In this document: positions 12,912 through 49,917 of the stretch, in pieces | Position numbering within the stretch: position 1 is the stretch's first letter | How the letters are laid out: each line of letters starts with the position of its first letter | NCBI GenBank assembly: GCA_944324455.1 | Contig: CALUWJ010000006.1 | Span: forward strand, 1 to 64,000 | Length of the DNA: 64,000 nucleotides | Origin: Candidatus Gastranaerophilales bacterium | GTDB taxonomy: Bacteria > Cyanobacteriota > Vampirovibrionia > Gastranaerophilales > Gastranaerophilaceae | Reading direction: 5' to 3' | Program-made: the position numbers and the translations under genes | The notes under the pieces: generated by a model | What the model was told of the DNA's origin: nothing | Seen by the model: only the letters and a program-made list of their open reading frames with translations | Database searches by the model: none

Positions 12912-13826
12912 ATGATTCAATTAAACGTAGATTATTCATTACTAACAAAATTTTTCGGCATTTCACCTTCCAAAATCCCTCAATATGCAAACAAGGATTT
13001 GGAAGAAATTATGGAGCTTGAAGCAGCCCAAGGCAATAAAAAAGCCCAAGACTATAAAAAAATACTTTCTGATCCCGATAAGCTTTATGAAATTTTTAAA
13101 TTAACAAATGTTGAAAATAAATTAATAATTCTGCAAAACATGTCTGAAAGTGATATAGACAAGCTCTTGCCGTATCTAACACAAGAACAGTTGGCAAAAG
13201 GGCTCAATTTCTTTACGGAAGAAAAATTAATAGCAATGACAAAAGAGCTTCCAATTGAAGAACTTGTTGGAATGATATTTGAAAAATTTAATCTTTTTGA
13301 TGTTCTTTCTCTAATGGAAGATGATGCAATGGATACTTTTTTAAATCAACCTGATGTTGAGAGAAAATATGCTCAAAAATATTTTGAAACACTAGATCAA
13401 AAAACACTTGAAAAAATCATGACCTATTCTTTTGGCAGCAATTTTGAAGGGAAAAGCCAAAAAGAATACTTAGAACACTTAGAAAATCTTGATGATAAAG
13501 ATTTTCAAAACTTTTTATTATCCATGGAGCGTGAACAAAAAATAAATCTTATTAATGGCATTGTAAGTCAAGATGAAGATTTATTATTGCTCTTTGAAAC
13601 AGATGACCTTGTTGCTCCTATGGAAATGCTTATGAAAGAAGATAAAATCAAAATGATGAGCACACTTGATAGTGAATTTTTAGTTCCGATGATTCAAGAA
13701 CTCCCGCTAAATTTAACTCAAATTGTACTAACACAAATTGACCCAAGAGATTTTAGCGAAATCTTAGCTGAGGATTTTCAAGATATTTTATCTGAAGTAG
13801 TATTATTTTCAACAAAAGCAGCTTAG
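12912..13826 (+). CDS. helical-repeat protein, MgtE-N/FliG-like
   Basis: 304 aa, not firmly recognised. From about residue 55 it is built of short amphipathic helical repeats (SESDIDKLLPYLTQEQL, FTEEKLIAMTKELPIEEL, DPRDFSEILAEDFQDIL) of the kind seen in MgtE N-terminal domains and in FliG. There are no membrane segments, so it is not an Mg transporter. The protein is acidic and probably cytoplasmic. GAAGG lies 8 nt before the ATG. It is convergent with the LptF/G gene (4-bp overlap). A flagellar switch-like role is possible given the flagellar genes nearby, but this is speculation. Confidence 0.7.
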   Translation: MIQLNVDYSLLTKFFGISPSKIPQYANKDLEEIMELEAAQGNKKAQDYKKILSDPDKLYEIFKLTNVENKLIILQNMSESDIDKLLPYLTQEQLAKGLNFFTEEKLIAMTKELPIEELVGMIFEKFNLFDVLSLMEDDAMDTFLNQPDVERKYAQKYFETLDQKTLEKIMTYSFGSNFEGKSQKEYLEHLENLDDKDFQNFLLSMEREQKINLINGIVSQDEDLLLLFETDDLVAPMEMLMKEDKIKMMSTLDSEFLVPMIQELPLNLTQIVLTQIDPRDFSEILAEDFQDILSEVVLFSTKAA

Positions 13827-18791: not shown

Positions 18792-18819
18792 TAAAGTTTC
18801 GCTAAATAAAAACCGTAAA
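18792..18819 (+). promoter_or_regulatory. sigma-28 (FliA/SigD)-like promoter
   Basis: TAAAGTTT (18792-18799) is an 8/8 match to the flagellar sigma -35. After 12 nt comes ACCGTAAA (18812-18819), 5/8 to GCCGATAA and including the CCG core. The spacing is one base longer than the E. coli consensus but within the range seen for sigma-D. It lies 38 bp upstream of the gene at 18858 next to the flagellar operon. Confidence 0.6.
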
Positions 18820-18857
18820 AAATAATATAAATAAAAACAATGGAGGCAATGACAGTT

Positions 18858-19919
18858 ATGGGTATGGCAGCATCACAAGCAAGATTTCTTGGTTTAACAG
18901 CCAGAAAGAGCAATGTTGAATATCAAGGTCAACAAATAAACCAACAAAGAACAGCTTTAGCTAATGAAAGCTCTAATTTATACACTCAAATGATGGAATT
19001 AACAGTTCCTACACCTCCATCTACATCTGATTATATGAAAACTTCTTATGTTTTGGAAGATTCAGGCAGTTATGATCAAAGCGATTATCAAATTACAAAT
19101 TTGACTAAAACTTATGATAAATCAGGTGAATATTTAATTAACTTAACCACTAAAAAAGAAACAACAGCGGTAAGCTCTGAAACTTATGATTTTAGTGCAA
19201 TCATAGATACAACAGACCCAAATACAGGAGCTAATGTTAAAACAATTCGTTTAACCGACAGAATTGACAGCAGCAAAACAATTTCACTTAATTATATAGA
19301 AAACGATTTAAACGCTTATGATGATAAAGGAGCACTTTCAGTTACCGCAAATCAAATTTATCAAATTGATCCCGATAAAGAATTAAACGGTTATGAACAA
19401 TGCAAAAACGATAACCCTGATATCGCTTATTTTTATCAAGACAAAAGCGGTAAAAACCATTTTCTAACTGAAGAACAATTAACAAGAATGTTAGATGGCG
19501 ACACTGATGATTCATATACATTCTCTAACACATATACATACTCTAAAGAAGTATCAACACAAGTTAAAGGTTATGTAGAAACATCAGACACAGGAAGATA
19601 TAGCACAATTCAAATCGAAGATAATGAAAATTATCCAAATGATTTAAGAGGTAAAACATTCTCTCTATCAACAGTGCAAGAAATGGATCAAAGCTCATAT
19701 GATGACGCTTACAATGATTATCAATATCAAAAAGCATTATATGAAAAATCTATTTCTGATATAAATGCTCAAACAGAACAAATTCAAAAGAAAGACCAAC
19801 AGCTTGAATTAAGACTGGATCAACTTGATACAGAACAAAATGCAATAGCAACAGAAATGGATTCAGTAACAAAAGTTATTGAAGACAACGTTGAAAAAAC
19901 ATTCAAAATATTTGCATAA
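18858..19919 (+). CDS. unrecognised protein with sigma-28-like promoter, flagellar neighbourhood
   Basis: 353 aa. The start is set by GGAGG at 18842-18846: ATG 18858 is 11 nt away, whereas the in-frame ATG 18849 is only 2 nt away. The N-terminal ~45 residues (ASQARFLGLTARKSNVEYQ, QQINQQRTALANESSNLY) form a Gln/Asn-rich helix resembling export-competent N-termini of flagellar axial proteins. The middle (about 60-290) is beta-rich, acidic and Tyr/Ser/Thr-rich. The C-terminus (about 300-353) is a coiled coil ending EKTFKIFA. No signal peptide and no cysteine-rich motif; one Cys only. A late, exported flagellar or surface protein is a reasonable inference, but no family is recognised. Confidence 0.8.
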   Translation: MGMAASQARFLGLTARKSNVEYQGQQINQQRTALANESSNLYTQMMELTVPTPPSTSDYMKTSYVLEDSGSYDQSDYQITNLTKTYDKSGEYLINLTTKKETTAVSSETYDFSAIIDTTDPNTGANVKTIRLTDRIDSSKTISLNYIENDLNAYDDKGALSVTANQIYQIDPDKELNGYEQCKNDNPDIAYFYQDKSGKNHFLTEEQLTRMLDGDTDDSYTFSNTYTYSKEVSTQVKGYVETSDTGRYSTIQIEDNENYPNDLRGKTFSLSTVQEMDQSSYDDAYNDYQYQKALYEKSISDINAQTEQIQKKDQQLELRLDQLDTEQNAIATEMDSVTKVIEDNVEKTFKIFA

Positions 19920-19930
19920 AACACAATCGC

Positions 19931-19958
19931 AAAAAGGGCTTATTGATAAGCCCTTTTT
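19931..19958 (+). terminator. terminator after the 353-aa gene
   Basis: Inverted repeat AAAAAGGGCTTAT / ATAAGCCCTTTTT followed by further T residues, 11 bp after the stop codon. Confidence 0.85.
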
Positions 19959-22981: not shown

Positions 22982-23296
22982 TTACGCGGAATAATCCGCA
23001 ATTACGCTTCTACCATACATTAGACCATAATTAATATCGTCAATAGATAAATTTTCACCTAAATCACTTGCATACTTTTGAATTTCTGCAACATCAATTT
23101 TATTTCCCTGTTTTTCCATTGTTTTTTGTATATTTTGCTCCTCTAACAATGCAATATCATCTTTTTTAAAATCTTCAACATTATTATCTTTTGAATCCAT
23201 TGAAGCTTTAAAAGCTTTATTTGCACTGTTTAAATTGATTTTTGAAACAGGATTAATATTAATTGAAGATACTTGAGTATTATTATTTATATCCAT
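22982..23296 (-). CDS. candidate FlgM-like anti-sigma factor
   Basis: 104 aa. The N-terminal half is Asn/Ser/Lys-rich and disordered-looking; the C-terminal half is helical (DVAEIQKYASDLGENLSIDDINYGLMYGRSVI). This matches FlgM in size and in having a disordered N-terminus and helical sigma-binding C-terminus. The gene lies between flgJ and flgN-flgK-flgL, where flgM sits in Bacillus. Primary-sequence similarity to FlgM is weak. It would be the natural inhibitor for the sigma factor of the promoter at 18792. It could instead be an unrelated flagellar protein. Confidence 0.6.
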   Translation of the reverse strand: MDINNNTQVSSININPVSKINLNSANKAFKASMDSKDNNVEDFKKDDIALLEEQNIQKTMEKQGNKIDVAEIQKYASDLGENLSIDDINYGLMYGRSVIADYSA

Positions 23297-34836: not shown

Positions 34837-35652
34837 ATGTCTTACAAAAATGACCATGAACTAACAATTGCAAACAGATATAGCGGAGCAAGCTCTGCAG
34901 CAAAAGCTGAACTATATGAAACTTATGACAGATTAAGAGATTTAACTGTCTCCGGTTCAACTGCCACAGGTTCAGGCTTTGGTTCAGCAGGCGGATTTTT
35001 GTGGCAATTAGCAAATTTATTCTCGCCATCATCATTTATGACCACTCTTGGGGGTTCATCTATGATGAATATCCCAGGAACATCTTATTGGTCACCTAAT
35101 TATGCTTCAAAATCATATTACGATTCAGGCACAAATGCATTTGGTGTATCAGGCTTATCAAGCTATTCAGGTTTCCCGTCAGGTGCCGCCGGAATTTCAT
35201 TAGGCTTTGGTACAGAAGGCTCTCCCACAGGAGGAGCTGCAGGCATGGCAACAGGCTATGCTGTGTCAGCAGCAGGAATTGCAGCCCTAAACAGCGCTTC
35301 ATATGCAGCAGGAGCAACATCAGGCTTTGGCTTCGGGCAAAACATTCTTCTTCCTATCGCAGGTCTTGTTTCAGGATGGGGCGGTATTTTACAAGCAATA
35401 GCGCCTTATGCAGGTGAGTTTGGTTTAGGTGCAATTGTTGCGGGCAACTTAATGCAAGGAACAGGTTCAGCAGCTTTATCGGCTTATCAAAATATCACAG
35501 GTAATATCACAAATAACGCAGATGTTATTTTAGAAGACAAAGTAAGAAATATTGAAACAGTTTGCAAAATGCTTGATACTCAAGCAGATATTGTTCGTCA
35601 AACCTTAAAATCTAATATGGAATCAGATTCTAAATTAGTTGATGAACTATAA
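34837..35652 (+). CDS. Gly/Ser/Ala-rich hypothetical protein
   Basis: 271 aa, not recognised. The N-terminal ~45 residues are helical (LTIANRYSGASSAAKAELYETYDRLRDL). The middle (50-215) is low-complexity Gly/Ser/Ala with aromatic residues and a hydrophobic stretch (ILLPIAGLVSGWGGILQ). The C-terminal ~50 residues (ADVILEDKVRNIETVCKMLDTQADIV) form a heptad-like helix. No signal peptide is visible. GAGG precedes the ATG. The layout (helix, Gly-rich core, coiled coil) suggests a surface or exported structural protein; this is inference only. Confidence 0.7.
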   Translation: MSYKNDHELTIANRYSGASSAAKAELYETYDRLRDLTVSGSTATGSGFGSAGGFLWQLANLFSPSSFMTTLGGSSMMNIPGTSYWSPNYASKSYYDSGTNAFGVSGLSSYSGFPSGAAGISLGFGTEGSPTGGAAGMATGYAVSAAGIAALNSASYAAGATSGFGFGQNILLPIAGLVSGWGGILQAIAPYAGEFGLGAIVAGNLMQGTGSAALSAYQNITGNITNNADVILEDKVRNIETVCKMLDTQADIVRQTLKSNMESDSKLVDEL

Positions 35653-48729: not shown

Positions 48730-49917
48730 TTATTTTTCGCTATCGTCCTGCATGGATTTAAACTTTTCAAGAGATTTATTTCTTTTCTTTTGGAATTCTT
48801 GCTGCGCTTGAATATCACCTTTTTCAGCTGCAGCTTTTCTAACGCGTTCTTGTTCTTTGGCTGTTGTTTTCTTAAGTTTATAAACAAAGATTAGAATTTC
48901 AGCTATAGCTTTATATAAATCTGGCGGAATTTGTCTGTTTACTTCAACAAGCCTAAATAAAGCACGAGCTACGGGCGGATTTTCAATAACAGGAATATTG
49001 TGTTCTCTTGCAATTTGTTTAATTTTTTGTGCAAACAATTCAGTACCTTTTGCAACAAGCATAGGTGATTCCATTTTTTCAGCATCATATTTAATAGCAC
49101 ATGCCACATGGGTCGGATTTGTTACAACAAAATCGCAAGTTGTAACAGCATCCATCATTTTTTGCTGTAATAGCTGCTGTCTTCTTTGCCTTAGAGCAGC
49201 TTTAACATTAGGATCACCTTCTGAATTTTTATATTCATCTTTTACTTCTTTAAAAGACATTTTTTGATCTTGCAAAAATTTCCATTTAGTTACACCATAG
49301 TCAGCTGCAGCGATAATCAAAAAAGCAATGCCTGCTTTCACAACGAAATCAAGAATTAACGCTCCAAACTGAATTAAAATTGCAAAATGATTATCAATTG
49401 CAGCAAGCATTAAAATATCTTCAAAATGTTCAGAATAAACCATATAGCCAATAACCCCTAAAACAATTACTTTCGCTATATTTTTAAATAAATCAAAAAG
49501 AGTTTTAGGGCTCATCAAATTTTTAAAATATTTAGTAGGATTAAATTTTTCGGCATTAAATTCCATAGGTTTTGTTGTAAACAACGGCCCAATTTGTATC
49601 ATATCGCCCAATATCCCAACAAAAGAAGCTAAAACCAAAATCGGCAAAAGTATTATTGCTGTCGGTATAACTGTTTTTGTAAATAAATACGCATAACCTA
49701 TTTCATCAAGATGTTTATTAGGGATTTGATCATAAATAATTTTAAACAATGCACTTAATTGGTCCCATATCAAGGGTGAAATTAAATAAATAAAAGAAAA
49801 CATTACAATAATGGCAATAGCAATTGATAAATCTTTTGACTTAACAACTTGCCCTTGTTCTCTGGCTTTTCTTAGCTTCTGCTGGCTCGCCTCAAACTGT
49901 TTATTTTCGTCACCCAT
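48730..49917 (-). CDS. flhB: flagellar export switch protein FlhB
   Basis: 395 aa. Four membrane helices (N-terminal half) and a C-terminal cytoplasmic domain with the autocleavage motif VTNPTHVACAIKY. FlhB sets export specificity from rod/hook to filament. The conserved start EASQQKLRKAREQGQVVKSKDL is present. The C-terminal tail of ~40 residues after the core is Lys/Glu-rich. It lies far from the flg operon and 6 bp downstream of the 842-aa gene. flhA and the fli export genes are not in the window. Confidence 0.95.
   Translation of the reverse strand: MGDENKQFEASQQKLRKAREQGQVVKSKDLSIAIAIIVMFSFIYLISPLIWDQLSALFKIIYDQIPNKHLDEIGYAYLFTKTVIPTAIILLPILVLASFVGILGDMIQIGPLFTTKPMEFNAEKFNPTKYFKNLMSPKTLFDLFKNIAKVIVLGVIGYMVYSEHFEDILMLAAIDNHFAILIQFGALILDFVVKAGIAFLIIAAADYGVTKWKFLQDQKMSFKEVKDEYKNSEGDPNVKAALRQRRQQLLQQKMMDAVTTCDFVVTNPTHVACAIKYDAEKMESPMLVAKGTELFAQKIKQIAREHNIPVIENPPVARALFRLVEVNRQIPPDLYKAIAEILIFVYKLKKTTAKEQERVRKAAAEKGDIQAQQEFQKKRNKSLEKFKSMQDDSEK

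What the first reader, a model, noticed from the sequence alone, without database searches (positions are those of the whole stretch)
18792..19919. Unrecognised 353-aa protein behind a sigma-28-like promoter next to the flagellar operon
TAAAGTTT-N12-ACCGTAAA precedes a gene with a well-placed GGAGG and its own terminator, facing flgL. The protein has a Gln/Asn-rich helical N-terminus, a beta-rich Tyr/Ser/Thr middle and a coiled-coil C-terminus, and no signal peptide, as flagellar axial or exported late proteins do. It may be a lineage-specific late flagellar, surface or secreted protein.
Basis: partly seen in the sequence, partly recalled or inferred. Interest (0 to 1): 0.72.

Follow-up and report, generated by a model that had tools for sequence, protein, structure and literature searches.

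The report
Exported proteins of a filament-less flagellum
Gut relatives of cyanobacteria that have lost their swimming flagella still keep a second flagellum-like export machine, and this protein belongs to a large family that is switched on like flagellar parts and most likely travels out through that machine, so the 'broken flagella' reported in these bacteria may be a working secretion organelle.

Summary
In detail: TAAAGTTT-N12-ACCGTAAA (18792-18819), GGAGG, a 353-codon ORF (18858-19919) and a terminator. The genome belongs to Candidatus Gastranaerophilales. The protein is one of 5 paralogues here, in a family with a conserved N-terminal helix block (~48 aa), a conserved C-terminal coiled coil (~50 aa) and a middle of 0 to >600 aa. 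All 286 genomes of the order searched have the family, including 165 without flagellin; adjacency to flgL is not conserved. Across the class, confident family matches occur in clades that carry a second, non-flagellar-clade FlhA (FlhA2; 59-79% identical in the genomes tested). They are absent where FHIPEP is absent or belongs to another clade. A flagellin-less genome (G001) encodes a filament-less basal body plus export gate plus FliA, and 7 of 8 family transcription units there have sigma-28-like boxes (14/1678 other genes). Against shuffled controls, 17 of 42 non-redundant members across the class reach p<=0.01. The predicted fold, two long terminal helices around a beta domain, most resembles flagellar axial proteins, without sequence homology to flagellin. 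Best reading: a FliA-controlled late substrate, possibly axial, of a second, filament-less flagellum-type export apparatus, not of the swimming flagellum. Export itself is inferred.

The parts
18792..18819 (+). sigma-28 (FliA)-like promoter TAAAGTTT-N12-ACCGTAAA
18842..18846 (+). GGAGG ribosome-binding site, 11 nt before ATG 18858
18858..19919 (+). 353-aa protein, member of the N-block/C-block family
18858..19001 (+). conserved N-terminal helix block (MGMAASQARFLGLTARKSNVEYQGQQINQ...)
19002..19688 (+). variable, beta-rich middle domain
19689..19916 (+). C-terminal helix; its last ~50 residues are the conserved coiled-coil block
19931..19958 (+). intrinsic terminator-like stem-loop
34837..35652 (+). 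271-aa Gly-rich hydrophobic protein (MSYKND.. family); homologues lie next to family members in L010, G001 and other families of the class
48730..49917 (-). FlhB2, export-gate protein of the second apparatus (66% identical to the only FlhB detected in flagellin-less G001; the own genome also has a flagellar FlhB on C2)

Best explanation
The 353-aa protein is a late, FliA (sigma-28)-controlled substrate of a second flagellum-type type III export apparatus (FlhA2/FlhB2; FliE-FliF-FliH-FlhA2 cluster at G000:C5:49.7-55.7 kb), distinct from the swimming flagellum of the same cell. In flagellin-less members of the order the machine consists of basal body, rod-like/hook-like proteins and export gate, with no recognisable filament, hook-filament junction or L/P rings. 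Proposed mechanism: FliA transcribes the family genes; the unsignalled protein leaves through the FlhA2 gate by its N-terminal helix; N- and C-terminal helices then pack together as in axial proteins (rod/hook/flagellin style), leaving the variable middle domain exposed, so that paralogues build or decorate a short axial structure or are released. Shown: promoter, family architecture, distribution, co-distribution with FlhA2, a complete candidate machine in G001, predicted fold. Inferred: export, polymerisation and surface exposure.
For: Family in 286/286 order genomes against flagellin in 121/286. FHIPEP hits in 286/286, in two score classes, ~870 bits (flagellar) and ~730 bits; flagellin-less genomes have the second. 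FHIPEP tree: FlhA1, FlhA2 and an f10-f12 clade are separate. At class level, confident family matches occur in the order and in families f9, f14, f15; none in f10-f13; f8 has only four marginal single hits. FlhA2 orthologues, 59-79% identical, were found in all 16 tested genomes of family-positive clades, against 43-48% in f10-f12; f8 and f13 have no FHIPEP. Flagellin-less G001 has FliE, FliF, FliH, FlhA2, FlhB, FliP/Q/R, FliMN, FliI, FliJ, FlgB/C/F/G/E-like proteins and FliA. Sigma-28-like boxes: G001 family units 7/8 against 14/1678 other genes; two of the top three textbook-consensus sites in G001 precede family genes; 17/42 non-redundant members class-wide at p<=0.01. Recurrent neighbours: short family member, MSYKND protein, ~90-aa helical protein, in several families of the class and in G001; the window gene's orthologue in L010 is also followed by MSYKND. 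AF2: helices 3-46 and 278-352 around a beta domain, pLDDT 81; the top 11 VIA rows are flagellar axial proteins.
Against: No secretion data. No sequence homology to flagellin/FlgL. Structural matches are in the range the tool warns about for helical proteins, and pTM is 0.40. Within the order both family and FHIPEP are universal, so co-occurrence rests on few clade-level events. Some members lack a recognisable box, for example the G001 324-aa gene and the own-genome C4 paralogue. The relaxed promoter pattern was chosen after inspection. Four order genomes show only the truncated FHIPEP-type hit (G045, G122, G218, G238), probably assembly gaps.
Confidence: 0.66

Rival explanations
1. It is a late component or accessory of the true swimming flagellum (FlhA1 system), exported late and associated with hook or filament.
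For: Adjacent to the flg operon here and in L008, L009; sigma-28 box; flagellar-like fold; the flagellated own genome has 5 family members.
Against: Present in 165 flagellin-less genomes; G001 has no detectable FlgH/I/K/L; adjacency lost in L007 and L010.
Confidence: 0.12
2. A FliA-regulated cytoplasmic coiled-coil protein (chaperone, regulator or scaffold) that is never exported.
For: No signal peptide visible; long coiled coil; the short 107-110-aa members could be chaperone-like.
Against: Variable beta-rich Ser/Thr/Tyr middle domains from 0 to >600 aa between conserved ends, in many paralogues, are typical of exported axial or surface proteins rather than cytoplasmic regulators; this is an inference.
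Confidence: 0.12
3. Secreted or surface protein that leaves by another route (type I, type IX-like or vesicles) and merely shares FliA control.
For: G001 sites matching the textbook box also lie upstream of other proteins, including some with N-termini that look like signal sequences.
Against: Co-distribution with FlhA2 across the class and recurrence with MSYKND and ~90-aa neighbours.
Confidence: 0.1

Closest known systems
Flagellar axial proteins (FliC, FlgL, FliD, FlgE/FlgG)
   Same: Sigma-28 control, no signal peptide, conserved N- and C-terminal helices that pair around a variable middle domain; best structural neighbours.
   Different: No Pfam/NCBIfam or profile-profile similarity; present in flagellin-less genomes; family includes ~107-110-aa members without a middle domain.
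Filament-less flagellar basal bodies of Buchnera (PMC8109811)
   Same: Basal body plus export machinery kept without filament in a host-associated bacterium.
   Different: That paper reports no recognised secreted proteins for Buchnera; here FliA and a large candidate substrate family are present, the apparatus is a separate paralogous lineage that co-exists with true flagella, and it spans several families of a class.
Secretin-less 'Myxo' NF-T3SS of Myxococcales (PMC3459982)
   Same: Flagellum-related export system earlier read as a degrading relic; proposed role in protein translocation.
   Different: The Myxo systems lack FlgBCDEK and FliEG; here FliE and FlgB/C/F/G/E-like proteins are kept and FliA-type promoters precede candidate substrates.
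'Incomplete flagella' of Melainabacteria (PMC3787301, PMC4040986)
   Same: Same gene subset in most Gastranaerophilales: no filament, cap, junction or L/P rings.
   Different: Those papers read it as flagellum loss or genome reduction; the FHIPEP tree and the regulated family indicate a retained second system.

Membership tests
Flagellin / FlgL axial family | Sequence match to Flagellin_N/C or FlgL/FliC models | tested here: not met
   No such hit among Pfam/NCBIfam matches; hhalign probability <1%
Flagellin / FlgL axial family | N- and C-terminal helices pairing around a variable middle domain | tested here: met
   (predicted structure; pTM 0.40)
Flagellin / FlgL axial family | Fold match to solved axial proteins | tested here: inconclusive
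   VIA Z 8.9-8.0 for FliD, FliC, FlgL, FlgG; Foldseek best E 0.07
Component of the swimming flagellum | Occurs only in genomes with flagellin | tested here: not met
   Family 286/286 against flagellin 121/286
FliA (sigma-28) regulon | Sigma-28-type box upstream, enriched over other genes | tested here: met
   FliA gene in own genome and in G001
FliA (sigma-28) regulon | FliA-dependent transcription | not testable with these tools
   Needs RNA or reporter assay
Substrate of a flagellum-type type III export apparatus | Co-occurs with the export gate and is absent where it is absent | tested here: met
   (few independent clade-level events; four marginal f8 hits at 2e-5 to 5e-5 judged chance)
Substrate of a flagellum-type type III export apparatus | Export through FlhA2/FlhB2 | not testable with these tools
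   Needs secretion assay
Non-flagellar T3SS (injectisome) substrate | System lacks flagellar rod/FliE proteins and has a secretin | tested here: not met
   G001 system keeps FliE and FlgB/C/F/G/E-like proteins; a secretin was not searched for

The most novel reading that the evidence does not exclude
Vampirovibrionia carry a second, FliA-regulated flagellum-type machine in which a new N-block/C-block protein family, ancestrally ~110-aa helical hairpins and in gut species expanded with variable middle domains, replaces flagellin and builds a short surface or host-contact structure. That would be a flagellum-to-secretion-organelle conversion independent of known injectisomes, and the real identity of the 'degenerate flagella' of gut Melainabacteria.
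Probability: 0.38. Interest if true: 0.88.

Novelty: new variant of a known kind. Interest (0 to 1): 0.76.

Why it matters
Most gut Gastranaerophilales have been described as having lost or incomplete flagella, and a 2025 survey asks openly what 'half a motor' is for (PMC12199754). Here the half motor is an anciently separate paralogous system, conserved across the order and in sister families, with its own FliA-type regulon and candidate substrate family. That turns an open question into testable predictions: what FlhA2 exports, and whether these commensals build an uncharacterised surface or contact organelle.

Tried and rejected
Pfam and NCBIfam scans of the protein found only sub-threshold coiled-coil hits. 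Profile search against PDB sequences gave only unrelated coiled coils. hhalign against own flagellins/FlgL was negative. Foldseek gave no match at E<=0.001. A viral-collection search for the 110-aa form found nothing. The AlphaFold2 model of the MSYKND protein was unusable (pLDDT 35.7). Three of the four own flagellins have no obvious sigma-28 box on inspection, whereas one has TAAAGTAT-N11-TTCGATAT, so flagellin promoters could not calibrate the motif well. Considered and dropped: phage protein (members near terminase/portal genes are followed by host secA) and FlgL-operon partner.

Full report
What is there. The window carries TAAAGTTT-N12-ACCGTAAA at 18792-18819, GGAGG at 18842-18846, an ORF starting at ATG 18858 and ending 19919 (353 aa), and a terminator-like stem at 19931-19958. 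The upstream sequence scores p=0.007 against its own dinucleotide shuffles, the box is kept in four orthologous loci, and the strict pattern occurs only twice in the 1.76-Mb genome, both times before members of this family; a reversed-pattern control matches 8 times. The genome has a FliA gene above cut-off and four flagellins plus FlgL.

Organism and family. Close orthologues come from Candidatus Gastranaerophilales MAGs. The own genome holds 5 members: the window gene, C1 (343 aa), C23 (243 aa), C4 (292-295 aa) and a 107-aa minimal form. All share an N-block (MGxAASQARxLxLTARKSNxEYxxQQI) and a C-terminal coiled coil ending ...KVIxxNIExxFKxF. In G001, a genome with no flagellin hit, members with both blocks are 110, 324, 360, 380, 554, 582, 583 and 703 aa, and a ninth was called with a truncated start. 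Conserved ends with a middle that is absent in short members and >600 aa in the longest is the layout of axial proteins; this is an analogy, not a homology result.

Not the swimming flagellum. The A1 profile hits 286/286 genomes of the order. Flagellin_N hits 121/286 (107 of 261 high-quality genomes). So 165 genomes have the family without flagellin. Adjacency to flgL holds in L008 and L009 but not in L007 (formate-transporter-like neighbour) or L010 (MSYKND neighbour).

A second export gate. FHIPEP (FlhA/SctV) hits are found in all 286 genomes, in two score classes: ~870 bits, in genera with flagella, and ~730 bits, which is what flagellin-less genomes have. Four genomes show only a truncated FHIPEP-type hit, probably assembly gaps. 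The own genome has FlhA1 (C2) and FlhA2 (C5), the latter in a cluster FliE-FliF-unknown-FliH-FlhA2. FlhB2 lies in this window at 48730-49917, while FlhB1 is on C2. A tree separates FlhA1, FlhA2 and a third clade from families f10-f12.

Co-distribution across the class. With an N+C-block profile, all sampled order genomes and families f9, f14 and f15 have the family; the best hits in f9, f14 and f15 are short forms of about 110 aa. f10-f13 have none, and f8 has four single marginal hits at 2e-5 to 5e-5. f8 and f13 have no FHIPEP. FlhA2 orthologues of 59-79% identity were found in all 16 tested genomes from family-positive clades (five order families plus f9, f14, f15), whereas nine f10-f12 genomes have only 43-48% relatives. 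The correspondence is therefore family-positive clade = FlhA2 clade, with few independent events.

The machine in a flagellin-less genome. G001 encodes FliE, FliF, FliH and FlhA2, FliR and FliMN, FliP and FliQ, FlhB, FliJ and FlgE/F/G-like proteins, FlgB/FlgC-like ORFs (by inspection), a FliI-type ATPase (by motif) and FliA (241.7 bits, cut-off 189.6). BLASTP with the own FlgH, FlgI, FlgK, FlgL and flagellins found nothing. [quoted passage not shown]

The promoters outlast flagellin. In G001, 7 of 8 family transcription units have TAAAG-N13-16-[GT][CT]CG[AT] within 200 nt upstream, against 14 of 1678 other genes (the relaxed pattern was chosen after inspection, so the quoted p of 1e-13 is optimistic). 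With the textbook consensus fixed in advance, two of the three best-scoring genes of 1687 are family members. Over 42 non-redundant members from the class, 17 reach p<=0.01 and 21 p<=0.05 against dinucleotide shuffles, for example TAAAGGTTCTAGATTCTGTGCCGATAA in f9.

Neighbourhood. In several f9/f15 genomes a ~109-aa family member is followed by a 290-315-aa Gly-rich hydrophobic protein beginning MSYKND or MSYKxx and, where visible, a ~90-aa helical protein. In G001 the order is 324-aa family member, MSYKND, ~90-aa, 110-aa family member, with the FlhA2 cluster about 5 kb beyond. The window gene's orthologue in L010 is followed by MSYKND; in the window itself MSYKND lies at 34837-35652. What MSYKND does is unknown; a membrane-active or tip role is only a guess, and its model failed.

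Structure. AlphaFold2 with ten sequences gives helix 3-46, a beta-rich domain 60-276 and helix 278-352 (pLDDT 81.4, pTM 0.40). Foldseek finds nothing significant, though flagellar proteins are among the top rows. The top 11 VIA rows are FliD, FliC, FlgL, FlgG and related axial proteins at Z 8.0-8.9, a range the tool says can reflect a common helical arrangement. hhalign to flagellin/FlgL is negative. It works like an axial protein on paper; membership in the flagellin family is not supported.

Conclusion. The best-supported account is a FliA-controlled late substrate family of an anciently separate, filament-less flagellum-type export apparatus. Regulation, architecture and co-distribution are shown; export, assembly and function are inferred. 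No held paper found by the searches describes this as a separate system, but subscription literature and preprints were not searched.

Noticed in passing
G000:C5:37397-38848 (-), L071: 483-aa protein with only the cytosolic C-terminal half of FHIPEP; similar truncated hits recur across the order (G002, G004, G006, G007, G010). Possibly a soluble regulator or docking protein.
   Followed up: partly
window 12912-13826: 304-aa protein with a weak MgtE_N-like (FliG-like repeat) match; its G001 homologue (C11:2640-3551) has a strong sigma-28-like box.
   Followed up: partly
L182, L184, L185, L186; G001 C6:36274-44115: Long family members sit beside phage portal/terminase-like genes, and in L186 and G001 are followed by host secA: a recurrent prophage remnant next to a family gene.
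   Followed up: no
class families f10-f12 (L234-L242): A third FHIPEP clade, 43-48% identical to FlhA2, in genomes without the protein family.
   Followed up: partly
G023 C2:137120 and 156171; G036 C1/C7; G070 C2/C5: Family hits with identical scores and lengths at two places in one genome, suggesting recent duplication or gene conversion of surface variants.
   Followed up: no
G001 C11:184961, C4:31258, C2:64318, C11:163821: Other genes with sigma-28-like boxes in the flagellin-less genome encode unsignalled proteins of unknown function; possible further substrates.
   Followed up: no
window 22982-23296 (-): 104-aa gene in the flg operon before flgN with no significant family match; position suggests an FlgM-like anti-sigma factor.
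   Followed up: no
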